NCBI GenBank assembly: GCA_900315485.1
Contig: OMZI01000011.1
Location: 38,334 to 102,333, forward strand
Origin: an uncultured Eubacteriales bacterium
Lineage (GTDB): Bacteria; Bacillota; Clostridia; Peptostreptococcales; Anaerovoracaceae
Direction of reading: 5' to 3'
DNA: 64,000 nt
Each line of letters begins with the position of its first letter. Positions within the stretch are counted from its first letter, which is position 1. Below the pieces are notes generated by a model. It was not told where the DNA came from. It made no database searches and saw only the letters and a program-made list of their open reading frames with translations. The translations under genes were made by a program, and so were the position numbers. Positions 19,645 to 60,077 of the stretch are shown in pieces.

Positions 19645-19710
19645 TATCATAAAAACAATTCCATGTGACGGCAGACAGACTTCCCCTCTCCAGGTCTGCT
19701 ACTAATTTAG

Positions 19711-19911: not shown

Positions 19912-19991
19912 CTTAAATACACAGCGGCAGCTTTTACGGCGTGCAGAGGAACTGTCTCTTGATATTGAGAAGGTCGACGAGAACATAATAA

Positions 19992-41212: not shown

Positions 41213-41259
41213 TTGACATGTGAGTTAGATATGGCTAATATAAGTATGATACATCTAAC
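41213..41259 (+). promoter_or_regulatory. Promoter with DtxR-like operator (site A)
   Basis: TTGACA (41213-41218), 17-base spacer, TAATAT (41236-41241). The spacer and -10 contain GTTAGATATGGCTAAT (41224-41239), 14 of 19 positions matching the DtxR consensus as I recall it (TTAGGTTAGSCTAACCTAA). A further half-site ATCTAAC lies at 41253-41259. It drives DUF6110 and the P-type ATPase. Confidence 0.65.
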
Positions 41260-41317
41260 TGAGCTCTGTGCAGTGTATTTGTGTCGATTTGAATGAATAA
41301 TTGAAGGAGGCAATAAA

Positions 41318-41632
41318 ATGGGAATCTGGAAATGGAGTCACGCCGGTATTTTCGTTGGAGGAATGGTGTTCGCAACTAAAGGCATCGAAGCTCTGAAGAG
41401 CAAAGCTGCTCACAAGGCGTACGTTAATGCCACGGCATTTGGACTTAGATGCAGAGATGAGGTAATGGAAAGCGTCACTTCGGTAAGAGAAGGCTGCGAG
41501 GACATCTACGCCGAGGCAGTAGAACTCAACGAAGAAAGAGCAAATGCTCCTGAAGCTGAAGCCGTAGTGATCGAAGATAAGAGCAAAGCTGCCGGGCCTG
41601 CGAAGAAAACAGCGAAAAAGGGAGACAAATAA
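41318..41632 (+). CDS. DUF6110-family protein
   Basis: 104 residues. The N-terminus (WKWSHAGIFVGGMVFATKGIEAL) carries one membrane segment. A helical part with charged residues follows, and the tail is Ala/Lys-rich. DUF6110 genes are commonly found next to HMA2-type metal P-type ATPases, as here, 15 bases upstream. An AAGGAGG site selects the ATG. I infer a metal-handling partner of the pump. Confidence 0.7.
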   Translation: MGIWKWSHAGIFVGGMVFATKGIEALKSKAAHKAYVNATAFGLRCRDEVMESVTSVREGCEDIYAEAVELNEERANAPEAEAVVIEDKSKAAGPAKKTAKKGDK

Positions 41633-41647
41633 AGGACGGAGGCGCTT

Positions 41648-43720
41648 ATGAGATTTATAGTCCGCGCAGAGTCGCGCGGCAGGATCAGGGTACATGCTGA
41701 CATTGACAGAATGCATCTGTCAGAGGCAGATACTCTGGAATACTATCTGAAAGCTCTTCCGGGAGTCGGTCATGTCAAGGTATATGACCGTACACGAGAT
41801 GTTGTAATCAACTACACATGCTGCAGAGAAGACCTGGTAGAAGCTCTGGCGGTATTCTCGTTTAATGATGAGAGAGCTAAGGCTCTTGTGCCTGAGCACA
41901 CGAGCAGGGCCTCGGACAGAGAGTTTGAAGAGCGGCTTGTGAACCGTATCATCGTGAGATATGCGCGCAAACTGTTGCTGCCGCATCCGCTGAGAGTTAT
42001 GTGGTGTGCGTATAAGGCAGCGGGATTCTTGCTTGATGGGGTCAAAGCGCTCAGCAGAGGTGATGTGAATGTTGCAGTACTTGATGCAGCGGCGATTACT
42101 GTGTCTTTAGCACGGGGAGACCATGATACATCGTCATCGGTAATGTTCCTGCTGGGAATCGGCGACCTGCTGGAGGAGTGGGCGCGCAAAAAGTCTATAG
42201 AGGACCTGGCAGGCCTGATGTCACTCAATGTCGATAAGGCCTGGGCGGTGCGAAACGGAACTGAAGTCCTGGTACCTGTATCTGAAATCCAGGCGGGTGA
42301 GCAAGTTATAGTCAGGATGGGAAATATGATACCGCTCGATGGCAAAGTCATATCCGGAACAGCAATGGTCAACCAGCAGACGATGTCAGGAGAATCGATG
42401 CCTGTTAAGAAGGCTGCGGGCAGCTATGTGTATGGCGGCACAGTAGTCGAAGAAGGCGAGTGCCTGCTAAAAGTAGACAAGGAGGCCGGCAGCGGCAGGT
42501 ATGACCGCATAGTCAGGATGATCGAGGAGTCTGAGAAACTCAAGTCAACAAGCGAATCAAAGGCTGCAGGCCTTGCAGACCGCCTTGTGCCGTACAGTCT
42601 GGCCGGAACCGTCATAGCTTATGCGCTGACACGCAATGTTCAGACTGCAATGTCCTTCCTGATGGTCGACTATTCCTGTGCTCTCAAACTGTCAATGCCT
42701 CTGGCTGTCCTCTCTGCGATGAGAGAAAGCGGCAGGCACAGGATCACAGTGAAGGGCGGAAAGTTCCTGGAGATTGTCTCAGAAGCTGATACCATAGTAT
42801 TTGATAAGACGGGAACTCTCACGAAAGCGACCCCGTCAGTAGCAGACGTAATACCTTTTGGCGGAAACAACAGTGATGAAATGCTGAGGATAGCGGCATG
42901 CCTGGAGGAACACTACCCTCACTCTATAGCTAATGCAGTTGTAGAAGCTGCCAGGAAAAAGGGCCTTGATCATGATGAAATGCATTCTGAGGTAGGGTAT
43001 GTAGTCGCGCATGGCATCACAAGCTCGATAGAGGGCAACAAGGCATCGATTGGCAGCTATCATTTCATCTTTGAAGATGAGGGCTGCAAGGTGCCTGAAG
43101 GTGAAGAGGAGAAGTTCAACAATCTTCCTGATGAGTACTCGCTGCTCTATCTTTCAGTGGCGGACAGGCTTGCTGCGGTTATATGCATTGACGATCCTGT
43201 GCGCGAGGGCGTGAAAGAGGTCATTGAAAAGCTCAGAGAGAATGGCTTCAGACGGATAGTGATGATGACAGGCGACAGCAGAAAAACCGCTGCATATGTA
43301 GCTTCACAGACAGGCGTTGATGAATACATCCCGGAAGTCCTTCCGGAGGATAAGGCTGAATTTATCAGAAATGCCAGAGAAAACGGCCATAAGGTAATCA
43401 TGATAGGTGACGGGGTAAATGATTCGCCGGCGCTGTCTGAGGCTGATGCAGGTATCGCAGTTAACACAGGAGCGGCTATTGCAAGAGAGATCGCAGATAT
43501 AACGATCGAGGCAGAGGACCTTCGGGAACTGATCGTGCTCAGAAATATCTCGGATGCATTGATGCACAGGATAGACAGAGATTACAGGGTGATCATCTCA
43601 TTCAATTCTCTCCTGATACTGTTGGGAGCTTTCGGGATCATTGCACCGGCAACTTCGGCAATGCTCCATAATTTATCAACAATAGGCATCAGCTTGTATA
43701 ACATGACAGACCTGATATAG
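41648..43720 (+). CDS. P1B-type metal-transporting ATPase
   Basis: 690 residues. The actuator motif is MSGES (near 246), the phosphorylated Asp386 lies in FDKTGTLT and the hinge motif is MIGDGVND (near 587). The N-terminal domain (FIVRAESRGRIRVHADI) is HMA-like but lacks CxxC. The transmembrane ion-binding motif reads SCA (near 342-344) instead of the CPC of copper pumps, so the metal is not predictable and may be iron, manganese or cobalt. The DtxR-like promoter upstream points to iron or manganese. Confidence 0.85.
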   Translation: MRFIVRAESRGRIRVHADIDRMHLSEADTLEYYLKALPGVGHVKVYDRTRDVVINYTCCREDLVEALAVFSFNDERAKALVPEHTSRASDREFEERLVNRIIVRYARKLLLPHPLRVMWCAYKAAGFLLDGVKALSRGDVNVAVLDAAAITVSLARGDHDTSSSVMFLLGIGDLLEEWARKKSIEDLAGLMSLNVDKAWAVRNGTEVLVPVSEIQAGEQVIVRMGNMIPLDGKVISGTAMVNQQTMSGESMPVKKAAGSYVYGGTVVEEGECLLKVDKEAGSGRYDRIVRMIEESEKLKSTSESKAAGLADRLVPYSLAGTVIAYALTRNVQTAMSFLMVDYSCALKLSMPLAVLSAMRESGRHRITVKGGKFLEIVSEADTIVFDKTGTLTKATPSVADVIPFGGNNSDEMLRIAACLEEHYPHSIANAVVEAARKKGLDHDEMHSEVGYVVAHGITSSIEGNKASIGSYHFIFEDEGCKVPEGEEEKFNNLPDEYSLLYLSVADRLAAVICIDDPVREGVKEVIEKLRENGFRRIVMMTGDSRKTAAYVASQTGVDEYIPEVLPEDKAEFIRNARENGHKVIMIGDGVNDSPALSEADAGIAVNTGAAIAREIADITIEAEDLRELIVLRNISDALMHRIDRDYRVIISFNSLLILLGAFGIIAPATSAMLHNLSTIGISLYNMTDLI

Positions 43721-43755
43721 GATGCCCGAGCGATCTGACAGCGAGTAATAATAAA

Positions 43756-43784
43756 GAGACCGGCTTTTGCAGCCGGTCTCTGTT
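43756..43784. terminator. Bidirectional terminator between convergent genes
   Basis: Perfect ten-base arms GAGACCGGCT and AGCCGGTCTC with a five-base loop, A-rich before and TGTT after. It serves the ATPase (+) and the flavodoxin (-). Confidence 0.85.
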
Positions 43785-43807
43785 AAATGTGAGAAAATTG
43801 CTTTTGA

Positions 43808-44230
43808 TTACGCAATCGCTGCTCCGAGAGCCTCGCATGCCGCAACTGCATCATCGTCCGGAGCTTCATTGGCAATGACAGGATCAGCGGCCAGAGATAT
43901 TCCTGACATCCTGGCATCATCTGCCCAGCTGTTCATCCATTCTCCGCCGCCCCATCCGTACGAACCGAACAGGCCGACCTTCTTGCCGCCGAGCTTGCGT
44001 TTCACATCGTCCCACATTGGCTGGAATTCATCCTCTTCGAGGACCTCGGCGCCCATTGCCGGGCAGCCGAATGCGATGCCGTCGAATCCTGCGACATCTG
44101 CAGGACCAAACTCTGCTGATGTGAGCTTGCTTACCTCAGCGCCTGCCTTCTCAGCACCTGCTGCTACAGCGTCAGCCATTGCTTCTGTGTTTCCGGTTGC
44201 AGACCAGAATACTACTGCTACTTTACTCAT
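43808..44230 (-). CDS. Flavodoxin
   Basis: 140 residues, a short-chain flavodoxin. The FMN phosphate loop WSATGNTEAM follows strand VAVVF; GCPAMGAEVLEE and FGSYGWGGGEW complete the cofactor site. The protein is very acidic. Flavodoxin commonly replaces ferredoxin when iron is short. It is the second gene after DUF3793, 80 bases downstream, and is probably under the same DtxR-like operator. Confidence 0.92.
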   Translation of the reverse strand: MSKVAVVFWSATGNTEAMADAVAAGAEKAGAEVSKLTSAEFGPADVAGFDGIAFGCPAMGAEVLEEDEFQPMWDDVKRKLGGKKVGLFGSYGWGGGEWMNSWADDARMSGISLAADPVIANEAPDDDAVAACEALGAAIA

Positions 44231-44310
44231 TTCACTTGTTCCTTTCTATATGCTTATATATGGTTACAAAACCGGGTATCCCCGAGGATCGTCTCAATTA
44301 TCTGCGTATG

Positions 44311-44910
44311 CTAACTTGCTACCGTGAGCTGGTAGATGCTGCGTTTGCCGCTTCTCCAGAGAGCGCTGTACACGCTGAAGCACTTCCTGTATTTTTCAAA
44401 CTGCTCTATCGCTGCATCCTTATCTCCATAAACTTTCCAGATGCCTGTATACTTGGAATTCTTGCCGTTGTTATCTATGAAACCCTTCACATCCTGAAGG
44501 GGATAGCCAAGAAAGATCCCTATTTCATGAGGAAATCTCATCTCATCCGGCTCCTTACCGGACAGGCGGCTCATGAGGTGATCAAGACAGCTCCTGATAC
44601 TGCACTCGGCTGAGCTGCATCCTTCGCAGCACAAACAGCTTTCATATCCAAAGGAACTCAGAAATCCCTGCACTTCCGGGTCGGTCAGAGTGCGGGCGAG
44701 AGATGTGTAACGATATACATATATGAGTGCACTTGTGGCCGTTCTGCGAAGTATGCACATGCTTAGTCCGTATTCAGCGAAGCCATCATTCCATTCTGCA
44801 ACGGCTTCTTCGACAGACGAATCAGAAGGGCATTTACAGCAGAACAGGCTGCCGGATTTGAGCGATGCAAGTGTCGGTGCACAGCAGTCTATGAGATAGT
44901 TTTCGAACAT
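44311..44910 (-). CDS. DUF3793 family protein
   Basis: 199 residues with many Cys (DCCAPTL, FCCKCP, SCLCCEGCSSAEC) and the segment MRFPHEIGIFLGYPLQDVKGFI, which match DUF3793. Genes of this family frequently lie beside flavodoxin or iron-transport genes in Clostridia. The Cys clusters suggest metal binding. The promoter on the minus strand carries a DtxR-like site (44931-44946). Function is unknown. Confidence 0.75.
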   Translation of the reverse strand: MFENYLIDCCAPTLASLKSGSLFCCKCPSDSSVEEAVAEWNDGFAEYGLSMCILRRTATSALIYVYRYTSLARTLTDPEVQGFLSSFGYESCLCCEGCSSAECSIRSCLDHLMSRLSGKEPDEMRFPHEIGIFLGYPLQDVKGFIDNNGKNSKYTGIWKVYGDKDAAIEQFEKYRKCFSVYSALWRSGKRSIYQLTVAS

Positions 44911-44930
44911 TGAAGATCCTTTCCTGTGCG

Positions 44931-44957
44931 GTTAGTTATCTCTAACCAAGGTCACAA
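44931..44957 (-). promoter_or_regulatory. Promoter with DtxR-like operator (site B) for DUF3793-flavodoxin
   Basis: The palindrome GTTAGTTATCTCTAAC (44931-44946) has five-base arms GTTAG/CTAAC six bases apart. On the minus strand TTGTGA, then 17 bases, then TAACCG places the -10 inside the right half-site, as at the other three sites. Confidence 0.6.
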
Positions 44958-44988
44958 TACATCCTTCTCAAAGGAAAGTCAATACAGT

Positions 44989-45017
44989 TTGACAAAAAAG
45001 TTAGTTAAGACTAACAT
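44989..45017 (+). promoter_or_regulatory. Promoter with DtxR-like operator (site C) of the large operon
   Basis: TTGACA (44989-44994), 17 bases, TAACAT (45012-45017). GTTAGTTAAGACTAAC (45000-45015) overlaps spacer and -10. Sites B and C sit back to back between divergent transcripts. Confidence 0.7.
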
Positions 45018-45076
45018 ATATTAAAAGAGAAAGGGACATTGGATCTCCTACAAGAGAAAGATCAGGTAAATAAGTA

Positions 45077-45859
45077 ATGACTATACATGAATTTGGCAAA
45101 GACAATAAACAGATAGTGGTCCTGATACACCCGTCAGCTGTGATGTGGGACTACTTCGAATATGTGATCCCGCTTATGGAGGACAGGTACCATCTCATAG
45201 TGCCGGCTCTTCCGGGATATGACGAGGACCGCATAGGAGATTTCACCAGTGTAGAAGAAATCGCAGCTGAACTTGCATACTGGCTGATCGACCACGGATA
45301 CAAAGAGATAGCGTGCATATATGGCTGCTCTATGGGAGGCTCTATAGTTACCCGCTTCCTGGCGGATGACCGCGTCAAGGTAAGAAATGCGGTGATCGAC
45401 GGAGGCATCACGCCGTATCAGCTTCCGTGGATCGCGACAAGATTCATTGCCGTTCGGGATTTTCTGATGATATACATGGGCAAGCTCGGGGGCCTCAAAC
45501 TGCTTGAGAAGGCGTTTTCCACGGATGAGTACTCTGATGAAGATCTTAAGTATGTAGATAAAGTTCTTAAATTCATGAGCCCGAGGACGATATGGCGGAC
45601 TTTCGAATCGTGCAACAACTATAAGATGCCTGACAGGATCCATACCGGCTGCGGGCATATTGAATACTGGTATGCTGATGCTGAAGAGAAAGACAGAAAG
45701 TGGGATATAGACTATATCCGCAAGAACTTCACGCAGACAGAGTTCCGTAAGTTTGAGGATGTTGGTCATGGTGGACTTGCAGCATTGAAGCCTGAATTGC
45801 TGGCTGCTGAAATTGAGGGACTGATAAGAGGTGAAAAGAGAAAATGGATAAATACGTAA
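45077..45859 (+). CDS. Alpha/beta hydrolase
   Basis: 260 residues of the alpha/beta-hydrolase fold. The nucleophile elbow is YGCSMGGS (Ser near 86), an oxyanion-type LIHPSAVMWDY follows strand 1, and a His lies in DVGHGGL near 230. First gene of the DtxR-box operon. It overlaps the methyltransferase gene by 16 bases, which suggests the two act on the same compound. Substrate is unknown; esterase, thioesterase or lactonase are all possible. Confidence 0.8.
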   Translation: MTIHEFGKDNKQIVVLIHPSAVMWDYFEYVIPLMEDRYHLIVPALPGYDEDRIGDFTSVEEIAAELAYWLIDHGYKEIACIYGCSMGGSIVTRFLADDRVKVRNAVIDGGITPYQLPWIATRFIAVRDFLMIYMGKLGGLKLLEKAFSTDEYSDEDLKYVDKVLKFMSPRTIWRTFESCNNYKMPDRIHTGCGHIEYWYADAEEKDRKWDIDYIRKNFTQTEFRKFEDVGHGGLAALKPELLAAEIEGLIRGEKRKWINT

Positions 45860-46677
45860 TAGAAAAGGACTCTGTGCAGGAGACTTTGATGATTCCGCTG
45901 ATAGGCCGCAAGGTATGTTCGGACCATTTTCCTGAACTGTTCTCTGACCCGGAGGCGGACAGGATACTAAGCATGCTTGATTACGATCTTGGAGGCAAGC
46001 TCCGCAAGATGGAGACTGCTCCGGGACTTTTCGGAGCGCTTGAGGTAGCTCAGAGACAATACGATCTCGGATGTGAGGTCAGGGAGTACCTGAGAGACCA
46101 CCCGGAAGCGGCAGTAGTGAACATGGGCTGCGGACTTGATGATACATTCCGTAAATGTGATAACGGCACCTGCAAGGGATACAACATTGACATGCCGGAT
46201 GTGATCGAAGTCAGGAATGCTCTGCTTCCTGCGGGTGAACGCGAGCAGAATATAGCGCATGATCTCAATGACTTTGCATGGATGGATATGATCGACGCAA
46301 GCAGCGGAGCCGTGTTCTATGCATCCGGAGTGTTCTATTACTTCAGGAGAGCAGATATTCAGAAGTTGTTTGCGACTATGTCAGAGAGGTTTCCGGGCGG
46401 AGTGCTGGTATTTGACTGCTGCAACATGCGCGGTGCCAGGATGATGACCAAGACCTGGATCAGGGAGGCAGGCATCAAGGATGTCAAAGCATTCTTCTCA
46501 CTTGAGGATGCTTCAGAGATACTGTCATGGGGTGGTCGCTTCAAGGATGTCACCTCAAGAAGTTATATGCGAGGCTACCGGGATATCTACAACGATGTCA
46601 GCCGGTTTCATAAGATCATGATCAGATTCTGCGACAAACTGGTAAAGATGGTTATCGTAAAAATCACTTTCAAATAA
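45844..46677 (+). CDS. SAM-dependent O-methyltransferase-like protein (LCMT/TcmP type)
   Basis: 277 residues of the leucine-carboxyl-methyltransferase/TcmP group: an N-terminal cap (ETLMIPLIGRKVCSDHFPEL), the SAM motif VVNMGCGLDDTF, then YNIDMPDVIEVR and FYASGVFYYF. This group methylates carboxyl or hydroxyl groups of small molecules. The first ATG lies inside the hydrolase gene. Similar genes accompany iron-type ABC transporter pairs in other Firmicutes, as I recall. Confidence 0.78.
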   Translation: MDKYVIEKDSVQETLMIPLIGRKVCSDHFPELFSDPEADRILSMLDYDLGGKLRKMETAPGLFGALEVAQRQYDLGCEVREYLRDHPEAAVVNMGCGLDDTFRKCDNGTCKGYNIDMPDVIEVRNALLPAGEREQNIAHDLNDFAWMDMIDASSGAVFYASGVFYYFRRADIQKLFATMSERFPGGVLVFDCCNMRGARMMTKTWIREAGIKDVKAFFSLEDASEILSWGGRFKDVTSRSYMRGYRDIYNDVSRFHKIMIRFCDKLVKMVIVKITFK

Positions 46678-46773
46678 TGACGATTTGAAAAGAGGGAGCA
46701 CATGGCAGAGGAAGACGGTTATCGATAAACCAGGTCTGACGGTCAACTAGGCGACAGAAGGAAGGGTGATTAT

Positions 46774-48603
46774 ATGAAAGAAAAGAAAAAAAGTGATCTG
46801 AGCATACTGCTTGGATATACAGGCAGCTATAAAGGTCTGACATTTCTGGGTCTTGGACTGTCTGCGATCGCTATGATATTAGGCATGCTGCCATACATCT
46901 GCATCTGGCTGGTGGCACGTGACCTGATTACGGTAGCACCAAACTGGACAGAAGCGTCAGGGATCGCCGGATACGGGTGGCTGGCTTTTGGCTTTGCCGT
47001 TGCCGGGATCGTTGTATATTTTGCGGCTTTGATGTGTACGCATCTGGCTGCTTTCCGCACAGCTTCCAATATCCGTAAAGCCGGGATGGAGCATCTGATG
47101 AAGACGCCGCTTGGATTCTTTGATTCCAATGCTTCGGGTCTGCTGCGCAACCGTCTTGACGGAGCAGCGTCAGAGACTGAAACTCTGCTGGCGCACAATC
47201 TGGCGGATATAGTGGGTACTGTGGCTATGTTTATAACAATGCTGGTACTGATGTTCGTCTTTGACTGGCGTATGGGAGCGGCCTGCCTGCTGGCAGCTGT
47301 GATATCAGTTGCTGCCATGGCTGCAATGATGACCGGAAAGAATGCCGGTCTTATGGCAGAATACCAGGCCGCGCAGGATGTCATGAGCAAAGCCGGAACT
47401 GAATATGTACGCGGCATACCTGTTGTCAAGGTGTTCCAGCAAACTGTGTATTCTTTCAGAGCTTTCAAGCAAGCCATAGAAGATTACAGCGCCAAGGCCG
47501 AACACTATCAGGCGGACGTCTGCAGAATACCCCAGGCAATCAACCTTACCTTTACGGAAGGAGCATTTATATTCCTTGTTCCGGTGGCGCTCCTGCTGGC
47601 GCCTGAAGCACTGGCTTCCGGAAACTTTGCAGGTTTTGTTGCTGATTTTGCCTTCTATGCAGTGTTCTCTGCCATCATATCAACAGCTCTGGCAAAGATC
47701 ATGTTTGCAGCCAGCGGCATGATGCTGGCAAGCACGGCGATGGGAAGGATCAATGAGGTCATGAGCGCGCCTGTGCTGCAGGTCACTGATCATCCGCAGG
47801 TGCCGAAAGATAACAGTGTGGAATTCAAAGATGTGAGCTTCACTTATGAAGGCGCTGATTTTCCGGCGCTTGATCATGTGTCGTTCAAAGTGGAGCCCGG
47901 TCAGACTGCAGCATTGGTCGGTCCTTCCGGTGGAGGAAAAACGACAGCAGCCAGCCTGATCCCGCGTTTCTGGGATGTCAGTTCAGGTAGTGTCGAAGTC
48001 GGAGGGGTCGATGTAAGAGATACCGATCCTCATATGCTTATGGACCATATAGCATTTGTTTTCCAGAATAACCGTCTGTTCAAGGCCAGTATTCTGGAAA
48101 ATGTCAGATCCGCACGACCTGAAGCGACACGTGAAGAAGTTAAGGCAGCGCTCTCAGCGGCGCAGTGTGACGATATTCTGGATAAGCTGCCTGACGGTAT
48201 GGATACAGTCATCGGAACGGAAGGAACTTACCTTTCGGGTGGTGAGCAGCAGCGCGTAGCGCTTGCGAGAGCGATCCTGAAGAACGCACCGATCGTTGTA
48301 CTGGACGAGGCCACGGCATTTGCAGACCCTGAAAATGAAGCTTTGATCCAGAAGGCATTTGCGGCGCTGACTAAGGACCGCAGCGTGATCATGATCGCGC
48401 ACCGTCTGTCTACAGTTACAGGCGCGGATAAGATAATAGTACTGGACAATGGAAAAGTATCAGAAGAAGGGACACATGAGCAGCTTCTTCAGAAAAACGG
48501 ACTGTACGCCGGAATGTGGGCTGAATACAATCAGTCAGTCAAATGGCGTATCACGCAGGGAGAAAAAGCGGGGCCCGGATCAGCGGAAAAGGAGGTGCGG
48601 TAA
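46774..48603 (+). CDS. ABC transporter, fused membrane and ATP-binding domains (subunit 1)
   Basis: 609 residues. A six-helix membrane domain is followed by an ATPase domain with Walker A GPSGGGKTT, signature LSGGEQQRVALARAI, Walker B IVVLDEATAFADPENE and the H-loop IAHRLST. The ADPENE sequence after Walker B is typical, from memory, of the siderophore-importing YbtPQ/IrtAB group, which are exporter-shaped importers. It forms a pair with the next gene, sharing one base (TAATG). No solute-binding protein is near, which fits that group. Confidence 0.88.
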   Translation: MKEKKKSDLSILLGYTGSYKGLTFLGLGLSAIAMILGMLPYICIWLVARDLITVAPNWTEASGIAGYGWLAFGFAVAGIVVYFAALMCTHLAAFRTASNIRKAGMEHLMKTPLGFFDSNASGLLRNRLDGAASETETLLAHNLADIVGTVAMFITMLVLMFVFDWRMGAACLLAAVISVAAMAAMMTGKNAGLMAEYQAAQDVMSKAGTEYVRGIPVVKVFQQTVYSFRAFKQAIEDYSAKAEHYQADVCRIPQAINLTFTEGAFIFLVPVALLLAPEALASGNFAGFVADFAFYAVFSAIISTALAKIMFAASGMMLASTAMGRINEVMSAPVLQVTDHPQVPKDNSVEFKDVSFTYEGADFPALDHVSFKVEPGQTAALVGPSGGGKTTAASLIPRFWDVSSGSVEVGGVDVRDTDPHMLMDHIAFVFQNNRLFKASILENVRSARPEATREEVKAALSAAQCDDILDKLPDGMDTVIGTEGTYLSGGEQQRVALARAILKNAPIVVLDEATAFADPENEALIQKAFAALTKDRSVIMIAHRLSTVTGADKIIVLDNGKVSEEGTHEQLLQKNGLYAGMWAEYNQSVKWRITQGEKAGPGSAEKEVR

Positions 48604-50345: not shown

Positions 50346-50364
50346 TCTGACGAGGAGGGAAACT

Positions 50365-52206
50365 ATGTCAAAGAAAGCATCACAGTTTCAAAAAAGGGTA
50401 ATGAGCCTGGGATACCGCGGCAAGGAGATATTCAAGCCGCTTAATACCGGGTGGATAGACGAGCATACGGCATGTATCCGTGAATGGATCGCCAATATAT
50501 TCTTTTACACCAAAAACGGGACCACGATCATGATCGATGCCGGATACAACTATGACAGACTTGCGGAAAAGATGCGGTGGCTGGATATCGATCCATCGTC
50601 CATTCAGGATATCCTTATTACGCATCAGGATACAGACCATGTAGGAGCGGTAGAACGCGACTCAGACGGACTCTTCAGGCATGCAACACTTTATCTGAGT
50701 GAAGTCGAGAACAGATATATGACAGGAGAAGTCCGCCGGAAAGTCATCTTCGGAACCTACAAACTTCCGATGGTGGATACGGATAATAAGAAGGTGCTTC
50801 TGAAGGACGGAGACGTCTTTCAGATAGGAGACATCCGCGTCGAGGCTATAATGGTTCCCGGCCACACCTGGGGCCATATGGTCTATCTGATCGATGATGC
50901 TTATCTGTTTACCGGCGACACGATATGGTTTGGCCCTGATGGGGGATACAGTTTCATCAATTCTCTTGCGGAGGATAATGACCTTGCAAAACAGTCTCTG
51001 GCGAAACTTGAAAAACTGCTGAGAGTGCGCGGCCTGTCACCTAAGATCATCACGGGACATACAGGGTGGTCGCAGGATCTGGACTTTGCTTTTGCTCATC
51101 GCGATCAGGTCTGCAATAGCCTAAAGCGGCAGAAGCCGCATGATCCGTCAGCGCCGTACGACGGATATGATGAGAGCGATGATACGGAAGAAGGAGCAAG
51201 AAATGTTCCGCTGGTTTCTGTAAATGATGTAGAAAAGCACAAGGTTCTGCTGTTTGGGGCAGGAGTGATCGGAGCATATCTGGCACATGTGCTTATCCAG
51301 GCGGGAAATGAGGTTACGATCCTGGCAAGGGAAGAAAGAGCTAAGTCGCTAAATCAAAACGGACTTGTCATAAAGCATCATCTGCAGAGAACGACAACAA
51401 AAGATCCTGTAGAGGCTGTCACGGATGTAGGGGGCCGTTCATTTGATGCAGCTTTTGTGGTGATGCCATACCATAAGATCCGGCAGGCTCTTCCGCAGAT
51501 CAGGCAGCTTAATACAAAACTGCTTGTGCTGGTAGGAAACGATCTTGCACCGGCAGAGGTGGAGGAGGACCTGAGAAAAGCTCCCGGAATCGAAAAGATC
51601 CTGTTCGGATTCCAGGTATCGGGAGGCAAAAAAGAAGCAGATCATTATGTATGCGAACGCTTCGGCGGAAGCTTCATGGACATTGGCAGGCTCCACGGCA
51701 GGACAGACACGGAACTGAGGGAGTGGACGGAGAAGCTGTTTGAAGGCACTTCATATAAGTTGAACTGGCAGGATGATATGGAAGCATACCTGATATGCCA
51801 TCCGGCTGCCATACTGCCGATAGGATACCTTTCATACATATGTGACGGAAATCTTCGCAGCTCCACAAAAGAACAGCGCAGGATGATGGTGGATGCGTCT
51901 CATGAAGCATTCGAAGCGCTGAAAGCAAAAGGTATCAGCATCTATCCTGAAGGGGATGATAAGTTCTACGAAAACGGGGCCAGAGGGAAGCTGATGAAGC
52001 TGCTTTATCTCATCATGTCCAAGTCCAGGATAGGAGACCTTATTGCCTGTGAGCATTGCCGGAATGCAGTCTCTGAGATGGAGCAGATAGATGCATTTTA
52101 TGAGGAGCTTCTGAAGGATTATCCTGAGGAAAAGCTTGAGACGTGGAACAGATTGCGGGGCATGATGCCGTCATGGGACGAACTGCATAGAAAATACGGG
52201 AACTAG
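50365..52206 (+). CDS. Fusion of metallo-beta-lactamase fold and ketopantoate-reductase-like domains
   Basis: 613 residues. Residues 1-270 are an MBL-fold hydrolase: LITHQDTDHVG (HxDxDH variant), VPGHTWGHM, FTGDT and IITGHTGW give a complete two-metal site. Residues from about 293 are an NAD(P)H-dependent PanE/ApbA-like domain with LFGAGVIGAYLA at the nucleotide site. Both halves look active. I know no standard enzyme with this pairing; a thioester or lactone hydrolysis followed by keto reduction is plausible. It also shares GKEIFKPLN with the next protein. Confidence 0.8.
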   Translation: MSKKASQFQKRVMSLGYRGKEIFKPLNTGWIDEHTACIREWIANIFFYTKNGTTIMIDAGYNYDRLAEKMRWLDIDPSSIQDILITHQDTDHVGAVERDSDGLFRHATLYLSEVENRYMTGEVRRKVIFGTYKLPMVDTDNKKVLLKDGDVFQIGDIRVEAIMVPGHTWGHMVYLIDDAYLFTGDTIWFGPDGGYSFINSLAEDNDLAKQSLAKLEKLLRVRGLSPKIITGHTGWSQDLDFAFAHRDQVCNSLKRQKPHDPSAPYDGYDESDDTEEGARNVPLVSVNDVEKHKVLLFGAGVIGAYLAHVLIQAGNEVTILAREERAKSLNQNGLVIKHHLQRTTTKDPVEAVTDVGGRSFDAAFVVMPYHKIRQALPQIRQLNTKLLVLVGNDLAPAEVEEDLRKAPGIEKILFGFQVSGGKKEADHYVCERFGGSFMDIGRLHGRTDTELREWTEKLFEGTSYKLNWQDDMEAYLICHPAAILPIGYLSYICDGNLRSSTKEQRRMMVDASHEAFEALKAKGISIYPEGDDKFYENGARGKLMKLLYLIMSKSRIGDLIACEHCRNAVSEMEQIDAFYEELLKDYPEEKLETWNRLRGMMPSWDELHRKYGN

Positions 52207-52247
52207 ATGCTGTTCAGTAGATATAAGACAATCTATGGAGAAAAGCA

Positions 52248-53816
52248 ATGTACAGAGTGACAAATCTTACAGATACAGAGATAAGAAAGATAGGCGATGC
52301 GTATGCTGACTACACATACTCTGAAGGTGAAGTCGGAATGACGCTGGTCTATAAGGACAGGCAGGCCGTAAGCGATTATATCTGCGGCTTTGTCAGCGCG
52401 ATGATCAAAAATGGCTCTCTATATACGACTGGCCCTGAGCACGAAGGGTATATAGCGTATTATCCGTCATGGAAAATGATGAGGCCGGCTGCGGTCACGG
52501 AGCTGCTCAGAACTTTCGGGAGCACTATGGGAATCAAGGGCGTGCGCGATTTAATAAGCAAGTTGTCAGCCGCCGGAGAATCTTTTGAAGACAGCCTGAA
52601 AAAGGCAAGGAAAAAGTATATATTTGTTGCTCTCGTGGCAGTCCCTGAAGAGCACCAGGGCAAGGGGCATATGCGCAAGCTTCTGGAGTTCGCCTTTGAG
52701 AAGGGGCGGGAAAACAATTGCCCTGTTATTCTTGACACCGATGATTCTCTTAAAAAGACCAAGTACGAACACCTCGGAATGAAAACTGTAAGGACCAGAA
52801 AGATCGCGGATGATTCATTCATGTATGATCTGGTCTGGGAACCGGATGAGAGCAAAGTAATGAGCTCGAAAGACAGTGGAAAGGAGATATTCAAACCGCT
52901 GAATAAGCAGATCGCTATTCCGGAAACCGAAGGATTCTATGGCGCATATTACCCGAATAGTAAGTCTTCAGATAAGGCGATGATACTTATGCTGGGAGAC
53001 AGTTCTGACGACAGGCTTGCCGTCAGCGGCGCAAAATGGATCCATGAACTTGGCTGCCATGCTCTTGCCATGTCCCCGGACAAAAAAGACTACGGCCATC
53101 ATAATTACCCGATCGAAAGATTTGGATCAGCGATAGCATTTCTGAAGGCCCGCGGCATCAAAAAAATCGGTATTGCCGGTGCATCTACTACCGGCATGCT
53201 GGCTCTGGTGGCTGCATCTTACTATCCTGATATAACTCTGACCATAGCGATGTCGCCAAGCGATTTTATCATGGAAGGGTTCTACCAGGATGGAAAAGAC
53301 GGTATGAGAGAACGTCCGGGAGACAATGAATCAACAGTAACGTGGAAGGGTGAGCCGCTGCCTTATCTGCCGTATGCATACAGACACCCTGAATACTGGC
53401 AGAAAATACAGGAAGAAACCAAAGAAGGCAGGGATATGGTGGCTTCGAGGAAGATGTTTGATGAGTCAGAGCGAAGACACCCGGTTCAGGAAGATGAAAA
53501 AATCAAAGTCGAGAATATCAAAGGGCAGATAGTATTTGTAGGAGCCGAAGATGATGTCCTGTGGGATACATGCAAGTACATACGCAGGATGGAGGAGAGG
53601 CTTACGGAGAAACAGCACGATTGCACTTATCTGTCGCTTATATACGAGCATGGAACGCATTTTGTTTTCCCGGAGTCGCTTCTCAGAAAGATGCTCCCGG
53701 TAGGAGCGGACCTGATGACACTTCTCTTCAAAGCAGGAAGAGAACATCCCGCAGAATGCAAAGCCGTTAGAGAAGATATAGATATCAAACTGAGAGAAGT
53801 AATATCTGAGTGGTAG
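52248..53816 (+). CDS. Fusion of GNAT acetyltransferase and alpha/beta-hydrolase (BAAT-like) domains
   Basis: 522 residues. Residues 1-205 are a GNAT domain with LVAVPEEHQGKGHMRKLLEFA, the acetyl-CoA loop. After GKEIFKPLN (211-219), an alpha/beta hydrolase begins; its nucleophile region is GIAGASTTGM (Ser near 316), with an acid candidate in FVGAEDDVLW and a His in YEHGTHFVF. The hydrolase half resembles bile acid-CoA:amino acid acyltransferase/thioesterase C-terminal domains and the free-standing protein at 60078. Both halves could use acyl-CoA. Substrate is unknown. Confidence 0.75.
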   Translation: MYRVTNLTDTEIRKIGDAYADYTYSEGEVGMTLVYKDRQAVSDYICGFVSAMIKNGSLYTTGPEHEGYIAYYPSWKMMRPAAVTELLRTFGSTMGIKGVRDLISKLSAAGESFEDSLKKARKKYIFVALVAVPEEHQGKGHMRKLLEFAFEKGRENNCPVILDTDDSLKKTKYEHLGMKTVRTRKIADDSFMYDLVWEPDESKVMSSKDSGKEIFKPLNKQIAIPETEGFYGAYYPNSKSSDKAMILMLGDSSDDRLAVSGAKWIHELGCHALAMSPDKKDYGHHNYPIERFGSAIAFLKARGIKKIGIAGASTTGMLALVAASYYPDITLTIAMSPSDFIMEGFYQDGKDGMRERPGDNESTVTWKGEPLPYLPYAYRHPEYWQKIQEETKEGRDMVASRKMFDESERRHPVQEDEKIKVENIKGQIVFVGAEDDVLWDTCKYIRRMEERLTEKQHDCTYLSLIYEHGTHFVFPESLLRKMLPVGADLMTLLFKAGREHPAECKAVREDIDIKLREVISEW

Positions 53817-53867
53817 AAAACTTTGAGATGAGTGTTACAGATTCATTTAGTAAAAAATGGAGAACAT

Positions 53868-55556
53868 ATGAACAAAGCAACAAGTCTTAGATACAGAGCT
53901 TTGAGCGGCATGTTCAGAGCAATCAAAGTGAATAAAATGCTGGATAAGCAAGGGGATGAATTTGACACATTGCTGAATGAGTACAGAAAGAAGCAGAAGA
54001 AGCCTCTGAAGATCCCTTACAAAAAGATGTGCGATAAGTTCGACGTCGACATAAGAAGTATAGACGGGGTCACATGCTATGTCGTCAGACAGAAGAACAC
54101 CGCACCGGACAAAGGAGTCCTCTATCTGTTCGGAGGCGGATATATCCTGCCTCCTGATCCGGGAGATATCGTCCTGTGCGGACAGATAGCTGAGAACTGT
54201 AACGCTGAAGTGTGGTTCCCTCTGTATCCTATGGCACCGGACAACGACCTGGTTCAAACACTTCAGGGAACGCTCGGCGTATACAGGGACATACTGGACC
54301 ATTATGATGCTGACAGGATCAGATTCTTCGGTACATCATCCGGCGGCGGGCAGGCGTTGTCGCTTTGCATGTACATTCGCCACGAGGGCCTGGATGTGCC
54401 TCTCCCGGGACGGCTTGTGCTGCAGTCTCCGGGACTTCAGGTGCCGCCGAGCGACAAGCAGAGAGCTGAAATGGACAGGCTCAGCCATCTTGATGTGATG
54501 ATACCGCCCGGATTCTTCGACAACATTGCGCCTGTTCTGGCAAAGGGAGACGATGCATATCTCCTCAGCCCGATACTTTTCGATCTCACCGGATTCCCTC
54601 CGATAGATATATTCTACGGGACCAATGAGGTGATGTTCGCATATCTTGACGACTTCAGAGCAAAGTGCAGCGAGTGTGGAGTGGAACTTAATGTACATAT
54701 CGGAGAAGGCATGATGCATTGCTGGGGAGCTATGGATTTCGTGCCCGAAGCAAAAGCTGTCAGGCAGGAGTATTTCAAAGCTATCGGCAATGAGACAAGA
54801 GAGATCTGCGTGCATGAGTACGGAGATCCGGCAGACCCTTTAATCGTACTGCTGGCCCCGATGCTTCTTTCCGGTGAGGACATGTACAATATAGTGTCAC
54901 CGCACCTGGAAGGAAAGTATTTCATAGTAGCGCCTGATCAGGGAGGACATGGCGATGCCGGAAGATATGTAAGCGCTGAAAGCGAGTACCGAGAGCTGAA
55001 GGAATACCTCGTTTCAAAAGGCTATACGGATATAAAGCTGCTGTATGGAGCATCACTGGGTGTCGCGATCGCGTACAGGTTGTTTGAGGACAAGGACTTC
55101 AACATAGAGAAGGCGTGGTTCGATGGTGTTGCTCTCAACAGGAATGCTGCTTTTGCCGAATCATTCATGAAGAACCTGTTCAGAAGAAGGAAAAAGATGC
55201 TGGCGAAGACTCACGCTGAAGCATCACCGAACCTGGTGGAGATGTACGGATACGAATTCGCTAAGAGAATGACTGCGAATTTTGCCCGCATAACGCTGTA
55301 CGACATCGACAATATATGCTATGCCTGCTGCCACTATGATCTGAAAACTTTCACGACAGATCAGCAGAAACGGCTGCACCTTGAGTACGGCAGCAAGGAT
55401 TTTGACCTGAAACTGTCTAAGAAGGCGATCCGCAAATATCTGCCTGAAGCCGTAACCGTCATAAGAGACGGCTATCCGCATTGCGGATACATGGCAGCTC
55501 ATACAGCTGAATATGTCAAGGAAATGGAGCGATGGATCGGAACAAGGAGCAGGTGA
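53868..55556 (+). CDS. Double alpha/beta-hydrolase protein
   Basis: 562 residues with two hydrolase domains. The first (about 40-300) is of the hormone-sensitive-lipase type: LYLFGGGYILP for the oxyanion hole, GTSSGGGQ with Ser near 157, and MMHCW for the His. The second (about 305-562) has LLYGASLGVAIA (Ser near 396) and YPHCGYMA. The GGAG site supports ATG 53868; an in-frame TTG lies at 53832. Two active sites in one chain suggest sequential hydrolysis. The gene overlaps the next by 25 bases. Confidence 0.78.
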   Translation: MNKATSLRYRALSGMFRAIKVNKMLDKQGDEFDTLLNEYRKKQKKPLKIPYKKMCDKFDVDIRSIDGVTCYVVRQKNTAPDKGVLYLFGGGYILPPDPGDIVLCGQIAENCNAEVWFPLYPMAPDNDLVQTLQGTLGVYRDILDHYDADRIRFFGTSSGGGQALSLCMYIRHEGLDVPLPGRLVLQSPGLQVPPSDKQRAEMDRLSHLDVMIPPGFFDNIAPVLAKGDDAYLLSPILFDLTGFPPIDIFYGTNEVMFAYLDDFRAKCSECGVELNVHIGEGMMHCWGAMDFVPEAKAVRQEYFKAIGNETREICVHEYGDPADPLIVLLAPMLLSGEDMYNIVSPHLEGKYFIVAPDQGGHGDAGRYVSAESEYRELKEYLVSKGYTDIKLLYGASLGVAIAYRLFEDKDFNIEKAWFDGVALNRNAAFAESFMKNLFRRRKKMLAKTHAEASPNLVEMYGYEFAKRMTANFARITLYDIDNICYACCHYDLKTFTTDQQKRLHLEYGSKDFDLKLSKKAIRKYLPEAVTVIRDGYPHCGYMAAHTAEYVKEMERWIGTRSR

Positions 55557-55849
55557 AGACCTGCCTGAACATGCTCTGCGATTCATTTAATCATGGCTAC
55601 CTGCTTGCCGAGCTGCATGCGCCTTTCGTTGCAAAGAACTCAAAACATCATGATGCGGTCAAGCATACGAATGCAACATTCGGATGGGGCACAAAATCCG
55701 GGGAAGAATATCTTGAACTTGAGCCGCGAATGAGCCTGATCTCAGAAACAAGCTATAATGAGGAAATGAAAAAGCATACAATCCGCGGCAAACTGTTTGC
55801 GATCATAGGCAAGAACCTCAATAACAGGCTCGCGATCTATAAGTGGTGA
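55532..55849 (+). CDS. Hypothetical protein, 105 residues
   Basis: No family is recognised. The protein is rich in His, Asn and Lys (HAPFVAKNSKHHDAVKH) and has a Trp-Gly pair in FGWGTKSGEEYLELEP. The start lies 25 bases inside the preceding gene, preceded by AAATGGAGC, so expression is coupled to the operon. It is a soluble protein with no membrane segment or signal peptide. Confidence 0.55.
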   Translation: MDRNKEQVKTCLNMLCDSFNHGYLLAELHAPFVAKNSKHHDAVKHTNATFGWGTKSGEEYLELEPRMSLISETSYNEEMKKHTIRGKLFAIIGKNLNNRLAIYKW

Positions 55850-55903
55850 AAGAGGCAACCAAATGAGTCTGCTGCATATATAGCTGTTACAAAGGAGGCT
55901 GAC

Positions 55904-56419
55904 TTGGGAATATTTGCAAGAAGGAAACGTGAAAAGCATTCTACTACGATGAGCATTGAAGAGCTCCGGATGCTGGATAACGATGAACTGCGTGACGCTG
56001 TATCTGCACGCATGATGAAGGAAGCAGGAAGACGTGAAGTGGCACAATGCCTGAATTTGTTCACAGGTGCCAGAAGAGTTTTTTATATCGTATCACTGTA
56101 CGAGGCTGAAGTCAGTACTGACGGACTGTGCAGATTTCTGGTTGGACCGGGACGGTCAGCAGCAGGATACATAATGGATACACTCAGAGAAATCCATGCA
56201 ACCAGACATGCGGAGCTGCTCAGGAAGTTTACATCGGAGAACAGCATCAATCTGGACGATCTTGGAGATTTAAGAATCGAGAATTCGTGGGAGTATGAGG
56301 ACGTGAAAGGCAGATACCCTTTTGACATATTTAATGAGAAATTCCAGAAACTGTATGACAAAGAATCTATAGATTCCAGATTGATGCAATATGTTAGAAA
56401 TCATATAGAAGAGTTCTAA
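55904..56419 (+). CDS. DMP19/DUF4375-like protein
   Basis: 171 residues. The central part (QCLNLFTGARRVFYIVSLYEAEVSTDGLCRFL) resembles DUF4375, a helical family that includes the DNA mimic DMP19, though the acidic surface of DMP19 cannot be judged from this. The start is TTG at 55904 after a perfect AAAGGAGG site; no better ATG is present. Its role in this operon is not obvious. Confidence 0.55.
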   Translation: MGIFARRKREKHSTTMSIEELRMLDNDELRDAVSARMMKEAGRREVAQCLNLFTGARRVFYIVSLYEAEVSTDGLCRFLVGPGRSAAGYIMDTLREIHATRHAELLRKFTSENSINLDDLGDLRIENSWEYEDVKGRYPFDIFNEKFQKLYDKESIDSRLMQYVRNHIEEF

Positions 56420-56557
56420 AGAGGAAATCACCAGAACGAATGCGGTATTCTTGATGCTCCTGCTGTTATCGCAGATTCTGAGAATATGAATAATGGAGGG
56501 TAAACGCCTCTGAACATGTGTGCAGGGTTGAAAGGGATTTTTCGGAGGACAAATATA

Positions 56558-57364
56558 ATGCAATTTGATGAAATGGGAAGTAAATATGGCAAAACGCTGA
56601 TGCTGCTGCCGGGAACGGCCTGTGACTACCAGACGAATTTCGGCTCTGTGATAGACAGGCTTGCTAAGAAATATCACCTGATATGCGTTAACTATGACGG
56701 ATTTGACGGAAGCAGTCTGGTGTTTCCGGACATCATTACTGTGACAGAGAAGATCGAGCGTTACATCAAGGTAAACCATGATGGCAGTATAGACGGAGCC
56801 ATTGGCTCTTCACTTGGCAGTACATTCGTCGGTCAGCTGATACAACGGCAGAATATACATATGGATCATGGTATATTCGGCAGCCCGGATCTCGACCAAA
56901 GCGGCAGATTCAGCGCGTGGCTCCAGTCAAAGCTGGTAGTTCCGCTTTTAACAAGTTTTACCCGCGGTGAAAAGCAGAAAGCGAAAACAAAAGAAAAACT
57001 CAAGATCTTTTTTGAGATGAGTGATGAGACGGCAGATAAGTTCATGGCTTGTTTTGAGAAATTCAAGCCCGAATCTATCAGAAATGAATACTACACAGAT
57101 CTTCTGACCTGGCTTGAGGACGATATCCATGTGGAGAACACAAGGGTACACTTCATATATGCAAATAAGATGGGAGAGAAGTATCTCAAACGCTATAAGA
57201 AATACTTCAGAGATCCGGAAATCAGGGAGTTTGATATGCAGCATGAACAGTGGCTTTTCGGGGGAGAGGAATATGCTGTTCCTGTACTGAATGCGATCGA
57301 TGAATTTATGGGGATCGAAGGAGTCAGGCTGCTGAAGGAGAAACAAAATCAAATGAACATATAG
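56558..57364 (+). CDS. Alpha/beta hydrolase
   Basis: 268 residues. The nucleophile elbow is AIGSSLGSTF (Ser near 85), strand 1 is LMLLPGTACDYQ, and a late His in DMQHEQWLFGG may complete the triad. TCGGAGGACAA upstream of 56558 selects that ATG over 56516. It resembles the first hydrolase of the operon (45077) and the second domain of 53868 in length and layout. Last gene before the terminator at 57379. Confidence 0.75.
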   Translation: MQFDEMGSKYGKTLMLLPGTACDYQTNFGSVIDRLAKKYHLICVNYDGFDGSSLVFPDIITVTEKIERYIKVNHDGSIDGAIGSSLGSTFVGQLIQRQNIHMDHGIFGSPDLDQSGRFSAWLQSKLVVPLLTSFTRGEKQKAKTKEKLKIFFEMSDETADKFMACFEKFKPESIRNEYYTDLLTWLEDDIHVENTRVHFIYANKMGEKYLKRYKKYFRDPEIREFDMQHEQWLFGGEEYAVPVLNAIDEFMGIEGVRLLKEKQNQMNI

Positions 57365-57378
57365 AGCATTATAGGATC

Positions 57379-57405
57379 GCTCCCCAAAAACGGGAGCAAT
57401 TCTTT
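57379..57405 (+). terminator. Rho-independent terminator of the large operon
   Basis: GCTCCC/GGGAGC arms with a seven-base loop, then AATTCTTTT, whose last T belongs to the next promoter's TTGACA. The same terminator-promoter join occurs at site A. Confidence 0.8.
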
Positions 57406-57433
57406 TGACACTCGAGTTAGATTAGACTAACAT
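57405..57433 (+). promoter_or_regulatory. Promoter with DtxR-like operator (site D)
   Basis: TTGACA (57405-57410), 17 bases, TAACAT (57428-57433). GTTAGATTAGACTAAC (57416-57431) is the best of the four operators: 15 of 19 positions match the DtxR consensus as I recall it. The -35/-10 arrangement is identical to site C. Confidence 0.75.
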
Positions 57434-58937: not shown

Positions 58938-58941
58938 GATA

Positions 58942-59439: not shown

Positions 59440-59463
59440 CAGGATAAAGAGGGAAAATAAGAA

Positions 59464-60075: not shown

Positions 60076-60077
60076 AA

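What the first reader, a model, noticed from the sequence alone, without database searches (positions are those of the whole stretch)
41213..57433. Four promoters share a DtxR/IdeR-like operator with identical geometry
GTTAG-N6-CTAAC palindromes lie at 41224-41239 (right half degenerate), 44931-44946, 45000-45015 and 57416-57431. In each case a -35 element is followed 17 bases later by a -10 that begins inside the right half-site. The best copy matches 15 of 19 positions of the DtxR consensus TTAGGTTAGSCTAACCTAA as I recall it. This ties the P1B ATPase, the flavodoxin/DUF3793 pair and both enzyme operons into one likely iron- or manganese-repressed regulon, which gene content alone would not reveal.
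Basis: partly seen in the sequence, partly recalled or inferred. Interest (0 to 1): 0.88.

Follow-up and report, generated by a model that had tools for sequence, protein, structure and literature searches.

The report
Iron-repressor switch sites shared by promoters
Four promoters in this gut-bacterium genome carry the same DNA switch site, which also sits before iron-uptake genes and putative iron-storage-organelle genes in its relatives, so the genes they drive probably form one iron-starvation programme run by a DtxR-type repressor in place of the usual regulator Fur.

Summary
The sites are real: GTTAG-N6-CTAAC, exact at 44931, 45000 and 57416, one mismatch at 41224. Three of four promoters share one geometry (TTGACA-17-TAACAT/TAATAT); at 44931 the site lies just downstream of a better -10. 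The regulon reading holds up. The genome has 7 exact sites against 1 for the reversed pattern; the genus has 141 against 39. The site precedes feoA in 30 of 30 fetched genus loci with at most one mismatch; 29 permuted palindromes reach at most 2 of 30. No Fur was found, and one DtxR-family gene (132 aa, MntR-like, no SH3). The P1B ATPase follows a DUF6110 gene, a FezA/FezB-like ferrosome pair; 27 of 79 such clostridial loci have the box within 300 bp. The ABC pair resembles YbtP/YbtQ. The box is the core of the palindrome proposed as operator of EqbA, a streptococcal DtxR-like repressor (PMC3672683, passages). Most likely: a metal-loaded repressor dimer blocks the promoter and low iron releases it. 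Iron over manganese is favoured by targets, not by the hybrid metal site. Binding is untested.

The parts
41224..41239 (+). operator copy 1, GTTAG-N6-CTAAT (1 mismatch); -35 TTGACA 41213-41218, -10 TAATAT 41236-41241
   Evidence: kept at the orthologous place in G035 (L063)
41318..41632 (+). DUF6110 protein (104 aa), FezA-like partner of the ATPase
   Evidence: PF19605 77 bits
41648..43720 (+). P1B-type ATPase (690 aa), FezB-like; putative ferrosome iron pump
   Evidence: TIGR01525 474 bits; relatives preceded by a DUF6110 gene in 79 of 80 clostridial loci, one Clostridioides difficile locus (56% identity) included; ferrosome role is inferred
43808..44230 (-). flavodoxin (140 aa), iron-saving electron carrier, likely co-transcribed with DUF3793
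   Evidence: PF00258 47 bits; a flavodoxin/DUF3793 gene pair lies behind an exact operator in L070 and L074
44311..44910 (-). DUF3793 protein (199 aa)
   Evidence: PF12672 177 bits
44931..44946 (-). operator copy 2, exact; best promoter TTGACT-17-TATTGT, 7 bases upstream of the site, so the site covers the expected transcription start
   Evidence: exact copies with other spacers before DUF3793 in L070 and L074
45000..45015 (+). operator copy 3, exact; -35 TTGACA 44989-44994, -10 TAACAT 45012-45017
   Evidence: exact with a changed spacer in G035
45077..46677 (+). start of enzyme operon 1: alpha/beta hydrolase (45077-45859) and LCM-type methyltransferase (45844-46677)
   Evidence: PF12697, PF04072
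46774..50345 (+). heterodimeric exporter-fold ABC pair (46774-48603, 48603-50345), YbtP/YbtQ-like; candidate iron-chelate importer
   Evidence: best bacterial half-transporter hits in the PDB: YbtP 300 bits for the first, YbtQ 282 bits for the second
50365..57364 (+). rest of enzyme operon 1: MBL+ApbA fusion (50365-52206), GNAT+BAAT_C (52248-53816), double alpha/beta hydrolase (53868-55556), 105 aa (55532-55849), DMP19 (55904-56419), 268 aa protein without a Pfam match (56558-57364)
   Evidence: same order in G035, 95-99% identity for the five genes of this stretch that matched; one operon is inferred from orientation and short gaps
57416..57431 (+). operator copy 4, exact; -35 TTGACA 57405-57410, -10 TAACAT 57428-57433; best match (15 of 19) to the DtxR consensus
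57492..60950 (+). enzyme operon 2: double methyltransferase (57492-58937), 165-aa protein without a Pfam match, membrane protein by eye (58942-59439), methyltransferase (59464-60075), BAAT_C hydrolase (60078-60950)

Best explanation
The four sites are operators of one metal-dependent DtxR-family repressor, most likely the only one found in this genome (C44:118-516, minus strand, 132 aa; outside the window). When cytoplasmic Fe(II) (possibly also Mn) is sufficient, the metal-loaded dimer binds TTAG-N6-CTAA, one dimer per site, and covers the -10 element (or, at 44931, the transcription start), shutting the promoter. When iron falls the dimer loses metal and lets go, and four units of the window are switched on together with feoAB elsewhere: a ferrosome-like DUF6110/P1B ATPase pair, DUF3793 with flavodoxin, an operon with a YbtPQ-like ABC pair and many hydrolase and methyltransferase genes, and a second methyltransferase operon. 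Shown: the sites, their promoter placement, their conservation before iron genes, no Fur match, one DtxR-family gene. Inferred: that this protein binds the sites, that the signal is iron, that binding represses, and the substrates of the operon proteins.
For: Exact sites 7 against 1 reversed in this genome and 141 against 39 in the genus (47 genomes). Composite TTGAC-N{5,9}-TTAG-N6-CTAA: 25 hits in the genus against 14 reversed, and all 25 have N7 although five spacings were allowed (some are orthologous loci, so not independent). feoA promoters: 30 of 30 fetched with at most 1 mismatch, 11 exact; reversed 0 of 30; 29 permuted-half palindromes at most 2 of 30. Spacing: over spacers 0-20, GTTAG-Nk-CTAAC occurs in 45 of 80 whole ATPase loci at k=6 and in at most 3 at any other k. 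Ferrosome-like operons: 27 of 79 with at most 1 mismatch within 300 bp, controls at most 4. YbtP-like promoters: 11 matches in 10 genomes; four are in the genus, in units that begin with a box; of the seven outside it, 3 have the box (G055, G074-C5, and G068 with 1 mismatch), all in genomes with a DtxR gene, and 4 do not: the three genomes without DtxR (G062, G072, G078) and a second G074 copy. Among 33 genomes outside the genus, the 18 with DtxR hold 58 sites against 37 control and the 15 without hold 11 against 33 (one-sided P = 0.005). The dtxR gene itself has the box upstream in G043, G070 and G055 (exact) and G036 (1 mismatch), 4 of the 10 more distant homologues checked, and lies next to feoA in G043, G066, G070, G074 and G075. 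No Fur here or in 31 of 47 genus genomes, 13 of these at least 90% complete. EqbA, an SH3-less DtxR-like repressor, binds a promoter whose palindrome has the core GTTAGATGTATCTAAC, with Fe, Zn and, less fully, Mn (PMC3672683, passages).
Against: No binding or expression data. At 1 mismatch the genome shows no overall excess (22 against 30 reversed), so a single degenerate site such as 41224 rests on conservation and promoter context. Two of the 7 exact sites (C35 near a larE-like gene, C42) have no -35 at the offset and may be chance. The metal site is hybrid: Asp at the MntR Asp8 position, Cys at the Glu99 position, the same set as PgMntR, which binds Mn and Fe (PMC4805248, passages). The regulator's own promoter, here and in all 24 close homologues checked, has no box within 400 bp (best 3 mismatches). 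In the genus the DUF6110 pair is rare (4 of 47 genomes) and the box stands directly before it only here and in one of two G035 copies; in G021 and the other G035 copy it lies further upstream, and none is in the short G012 flank. The draft is 85.6% complete, so a second regulator could be missing, although sister G035 (95%) also shows one DtxR and no Fur. 16 of 47 genus genomes do have a Fur-family match.
Confidence: 0.83

Rival explanations
1. The same repressor and sites, but the signal is manganese: an MntR-type regulon.
For: The regulator is nearest to MntR by profile (NCBIfam MntR 98 bits, under the cut-off of 153; DtxR 47.5) and by PDB hits and has Asp at the MntR Asp8 position. PgMntR with the same ligand set responds to Mn (PMC4805248, passages).
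Against: Targets are feoAB, flavodoxin, ferrosome-like and YbtPQ-like genes. No Nramp match in this genome, and the two clear genus Nramp genes (G029, G040) have no box in the fetched flanks of about 1.5 kb, although their operon promoters may lie further out. Cys at the Glu99 position is a DtxR trait. No Fur match is there to handle iron in this genome.
Confidence: 0.1
2. The sites are real operators of one regulon but are read by another regulator, not by this DtxR-family protein.
For: No direct link of protein to site in this genome; dtxR lies on another contig and has no box of its own.
Against: The box lies next to dtxR in four related genomes, tracks DtxR presence across the order, contains the DtxR-family half-site TTAG-N6-CTAA (compare PMC8464063, passages) and equals the core of the EqbA operator.
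Confidence: 0.06
3. Chance palindromes in promoters.
For: No excess at 1-2 mismatches; about 2.6 exact sites expected in the genome from base composition.
Against: 30 of 30 fetched feoA promoters, fixed spacing in 25 of 25 composite hits, spacer specificity of 6.
Confidence: 0.01

Closest known systems
EqbA and its proposed eqbB operator (Streptococcus equi equibactin locus, PMC3672683, passages seen)
   Same: SH3-less DtxR-like repressor with the DtxR-type Cys; palindrome core GTTAG-N6-CTAAC in front of an iron-acquisition operon; low-GC Gram-positive
   Different: EqbA is described for one locus on a mobile element and has Asn, not Asp, at the other ligand position; its palindrome extends to 36 bp. 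Here the core box recurs before feoAB, ferrosome-like and other genes across a genus in which 31 of 47 genomes show no Fur
DtxR/IdeR regulons of Actinobacteria (PMC10317159, PMC8464063, passages seen)
   Same: TTAG and CTAA half-sites overlapping the -10; DtxR-family repressor; iron-uptake targets
   Different: single-dimer sites with a 6-base spacer, not the 19-bp two-dimer box; two-domain regulator without SH3; Asp in place of Met10
MntR regulons
   Same: two-domain, about 130-140 aa; nearest profile match
   Different: iron-type targets; Cys at the Glu99 position; no Nramp target found
Clostridioides difficile ferrosome genes fezA/fezB (PMC12574912, a review, passages seen)
   Same: P1B ATPase with a small DUF6110 membrane-protein partner (identity with FezA/FezB recalled), iron-responsive control
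   Different: repressed by Fur in C. difficile; here preceded by a DtxR-type box in a genome without a Fur match

Membership tests
DtxR/MntR regulator family | N-terminal PF01325 and C-terminal PF02742 domains | tested here: met
   49.1 and 56.3 bits, both over the cut-off
DtxR/IdeR iron subfamily | Met10 and Cys102 sulfur ligands | tested here: not met
   Cys present, Asp in place of Met (DtxR and MntR reference sequences typed from recall, MntR alignment also)
DtxR/IdeR iron subfamily | C-terminal SH3-like domain | tested here: not met
   protein ends at 132 aa
DtxR/IdeR regulon | 19-bp TTAGGTTAGSCTAACCTAA box | tested here: not met
   12-15 of 19 positions; the conserved unit is GTTAG-N6-CTAAC
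DtxR/IdeR regulon | box overlapping the -10 of iron-uptake genes | tested here: met
   box before feoA in 30 of 30 fetched loci, overlap with the -10 read by eye; window promoters 3 of 4
EqbA-type subclass | no SH3, DtxR-type Cys, GTTAG-N6-CTAAC palindrome | tested here: met
   by comparison with the printed operator and text, no EqbA sequence was aligned
EqbA-type subclass | Fe/Zn/Mn-dependent binding to the palindrome | not testable with these tools
   needs a binding assay
MntR regulon | control of Mn uptake (mntH or mntABC) | tested here: inconclusive
   no Nramp match in this genome; 2 genus Nramp genes without a box in the fetched flanks; MntABC not searched
Ferrosome (fez) gene cluster | P1B ATPase next to a small FezA-like membrane protein | tested here: met
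   DUF6110 + ATPase; C. difficile locus L240 56% identical with a DUF6110 neighbour; that these are fezA/fezB is recalled
Ferrosome (fez) gene cluster | forms iron-storage organelles | not testable with these tools
   needs electron microscopy
YbtPQ/IrtAB siderophore importers | heterodimeric exporter-fold ABC that imports ferric siderophore | tested here: inconclusive
   best bacterial half-transporter hits are YbtP and YbtQ, but eukaryotic full transporters score higher and the margins over MsbA (262 against 300 bits) and TM_0288 (257 against 282) are small; import untested

The most novel reading that the evidence does not exclude
In a clade of gut Clostridia (Mogibacterium-like, Anaerovoracaceae) an MntR-like, SH3-less DtxR-family repressor has replaced Fur as the global iron regulator, acting through single-dimer GTTAG-N6-CTAAC boxes; the same box is a widespread clostridial iron box that puts ferrosome-type iron-storage genes under DtxR-type rather than Fur control in many gut species.
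Probability: 0.68. Interest if true: 0.7.

Novelty: new variant of a known kind. Interest (0 to 1): 0.62.

Why it matters
A recent review states that most low-GC Gram-positives use Fur for iron and limit DtxR-family regulators to manganese (PMC10317159, passage), and an IdeR study left open what single-dimer half-sites do (PMC8464063, passage). This window points to a clade in which the iron response would run on such half-sites without Fur. It assigns a likely signal to ferrosome-like operons of a good part of gut Clostridia, and it names genes (DUF3793, DMP19, the hydrolase and methyltransferase operons) as probable iron-starvation genes, which makes them testable.

Tried and rejected
Rejected or unhelpful: loose matching of the palindrome (no excess over chance at 1-2 mismatches); the composite pattern at up to 3 mismatches in this genome (36 against 39 reversed; the forward hits at 0-1 mismatch are 5, the control's split by mismatch is not given, and the variable-gap pattern at 0 mismatch is 5 against 0); a Fur-box scan upstream of ferrosome-like operons (2 of 79 at 1 mismatch and 6 at 2, against 0.4% and 2.9% in shuffles: a small excess, not followed up); autoregulation of the regulator in its own clade (none seen); a box upstream of 39588 as in G035 (best is 4 mismatches here). 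Paper searches for the operator written as a string returned 0 papers, though the EqbA paper prints a palindrome that contains it, which such a search could not find; searches joining DtxR with Clostridia, gut or feo terms listed no title that describes this regulon (capped lists of open-licence papers, titles and abstract starts only). In a search with ferrosome, DtxR, IdeR, MntR and Fur, the word ferrosome was in none of the 10 papers listed of 128. No structure prediction was run. The C35 and C42 sites were left as unexplained or chance.
Full report
What was checked. The window is G000:C25:38334-102333 of a 2.52 Mb draft in 59 contigs, 85.6% complete. A genus member, G021, has a contig of the same length (75,949) and with the same ATPase match (82%) as JAFWGQ010000071.1, titled 'Mogibacterium sp. 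isolate RGIG5722 Sheep_Ileum' (NCBI places Mogibacterium in Peptostreptococcales, Anaerovoracaceae). The genus assignment of the window itself is inferred from that.

The sites. GTTAG-N6-CTAAC is exact at 44931, 45000 and 57416 and has one mismatch at 41224. Three promoters have TTGACA, 17 bases, then a -10 that starts at position 13 of the site. The minus-strand site at 44931 does not: its best promoter is TTGACT-17-TATTGT, 7 bases upstream, so the operator there covers the expected start of transcription. The 15-of-19 match to the DtxR consensus is correct for 57416.

Is it chance? Loose matching shows nothing (10 against 15.9 expected; 22 against 30 reversed). Exact sites do: 7 against 1 reversed in this genome, 141 against 39 in the 47 genomes of the genus (sums and a paired test, P = 3e-5). 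Allowing five spacings between TTGAC and TTAG, the genus gives 25 hits against 14 reversed, and all 25 have the same spacing; some of the 25 are orthologous loci. The 33 genomes outside the genus give 16 hits against 29, with mixed spacings (sums and spacings counted by me from its table). Spacer 6 is specific: GTTAG-Nk-CTAAC for k = 0-20 occurs in 45 of 80 whole ATPase loci at k = 6, 3 at k = 10 and none at other k; in the 30 feoA loci 11 at k = 6, 9 at k = 10, 1 at k = 0.

Iron genes. This genome's feoA-feoB promoter (C55) has a one-mismatch site with TTGACT-17-TATAAC overlapping it, read by eye. Of 80 genomes 47 have a feoA match at the cut-off used, 41 of them in the genus; loci were handed out for 30, all in the genus. 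All 30 have the box with at most one mismatch within 350 bp (11 exact); mononucleotide shuffles give about 1%, the reversed pattern 0, and 29 palindromes made from permuted half-sites at most 2. Among 26 non-redundant feoA promoters it is 26 of 26. In G005 both feoA and feoB have exact boxes, and in G036 feoA has one.

The regulator. One DtxR-family gene was found (C44:118-516, minus strand) and no Fur-family gene, while 13 of 14 control genomes rang. In the genus 44 of 47 genomes have one DtxR-family match and 16 of 47 have a Fur-family match, one of them weak; of the 19 genus genomes that are at least 90% complete, 13 have none, whereas all 32 genomes outside the family have at least one. 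The protein has both DtxR domains and no SH3 domain, nearest to MntR by profile (98 bits, under the equivalog cut-off of 153) and in the PDB. Its predicted ligands are Asp9, Cys, Glu, His: Asp as in MntR, Cys as in DtxR. Feo-linked relatives in G036 and G043 have Met and Cys, the DtxR set. PgMntR has the Asp/Cys set and binds Mn and Fe (PMC4805248, passages), so the ligands do not settle the metal.

Linking regulator and box. The box lies in front of dtxR itself in G043 (two boxes between divergent feoA and dtxR), G070 and G055, and with one mismatch in G036: 4 of 10 more distant homologues checked, 0 of 24 close ones, and not in this genome. Among 33 genomes outside the genus, the 18 with DtxR hold 58 exact sites against 37 control and the 15 without hold 11 against 33 (one-sided P = 0.005 on sites, 0.011 on the difference). 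YbtP-like genes: of 11 matches in 10 of 80 genomes (only 16 candidates per genome were scored), four are in the genus and lie in units that begin with a box; of seven outside it, three have the box (G055, G074-C5, and G068 with one mismatch), all in DtxR-bearing genomes; four do not (G062, G072 and G078, without DtxR, and a second G074 copy). A weaker ABC pair in G059 (38-40% identity) also has an exact box about 0.3 kb upstream.

Ferrosome-like operons. The ATPase is preceded by a DUF6110 protein. In the genus the pair is rare: DUF6110 in 4 of 47 genomes, with the box directly before it here and in one G035 copy, further upstream in G021 and the other G035 copy, and none in the short G012 flank. 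Of the latter 27 have the box with at most 1 mismatch within 300 bp, 15 exact; 52 do not. Shuffles give 0.8%, the reversed pattern 2, permuted palindromes at most 4; after removal of similar upstream regions it is 27 of 73. The spacers differ between loci, so it is the palindrome that is kept. Cultured examples include Ruminococcus albus 8, Blautia schinkii and Faecalibacterium prausnitzii (one mismatch each). Neither C. difficile locus has one, in line with Fur repression of fezA/fezB there (PMC12574912, passages).

Other members. Exact boxes with the shared geometry precede a DMP19-like gene (C31:16495; the window's operon 1 also has a DMP19 gene) and a BAAT_C hydrolase behind a ZIP-like fragment (C31:43212). 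In the window the ABC pair's best bacterial half-transporter hits in the PDB are YbtP and YbtQ in matching order, though ABC exporters are all alike and eukaryotic full transporters score higher. Flavodoxin points to iron sparing (general knowledge). The hydrolases and methyltransferases fit processing of an imported iron chelate or making of a small metallophore; nothing here decides between these.

Literature. DtxR-family iron boxes are usually 19 bp and bind two dimers, and IdeR also binds a single-dimer half-site, TTAGGNNNNCCTAA (PMC10317159 and PMC8464063, passages). The closest tested precedent is EqbA of Streptococcus equi: an SH3-less DtxR-like repressor that shares DtxR's Cys; its proposed operator is a 36-bp palindrome whose core, as printed, is GTTAGATGTATCTAAC, and binding to the promoter needed the palindrome and responded to Fe, Zn and, less fully, Mn (PMC3672683, passages). 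Its authors called the operator unlike other iron boxes and EqbA a likely new subclass. The present data suggest that this subclass has a wide clostridial iron regulon.

Verdict. It is a new variant of a known kind. Not shown: binding, repression, the metal, and the chemistry of the enzyme operons.

Noticed in passing
G000:C25:20443-25273 (L024 443-5273), about 13 kb upstream of the window: NifH-like protein, two nitrogenase-component-1-type proteins and a Peripla_BP_2 binding protein in a row: a nitrogenase-like cluster of unknown role.
   Followed up: partly
L111 (G059:C94) 16093-20000: An exact operator 53 bp before a small nicotianamine-synthase-like gene (PF03059, 32 bits, over cut-off), followed by an LPG_synthase_TM protein, a FeoA-like and a FeoB-like gene (the last two by eye and a 25% match): a possible metallophore operon under the same box.
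   Followed up: partly
L018 (G000:C31) 9882-10049: The ORF right after an exact operator is a 55-aa fragment that resembles part of a 261-aa ZIP transporter present in G001 (L075); the copy here looks cut short.
   Followed up: no
G011, G016, G019, G027, G032, G045, G046: A Fur-family match lies about 0.3-0.5 kb from the DtxR match, on the opposite strand, in these genus members.
   Followed up: no
L128-L157 (feoA loci): GTTAG-N10-CTAAC, i.e. an extra TAAC repeat, in 9 of 30 feoA loci; may be a second overlapping dimer site.
   Followed up: no
L114 (G027:C37), L110 (G059:C44): Tandem exact operators 21 bp apart, about two helical turns.
   Followed up: no
L082 (G055:C65): DtxR-family protein whose C-terminal part looks FeoA-like (258-aa frame), with an exact operator upstream; the domain call is by eye.
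   Followed up: no
G000:C35:75164 and C42:139721: Exact palindromes without a -35 at the usual offset, one 186 bp before a LarE-like gene (name recalled); function or chance undecided.
   Followed up: no
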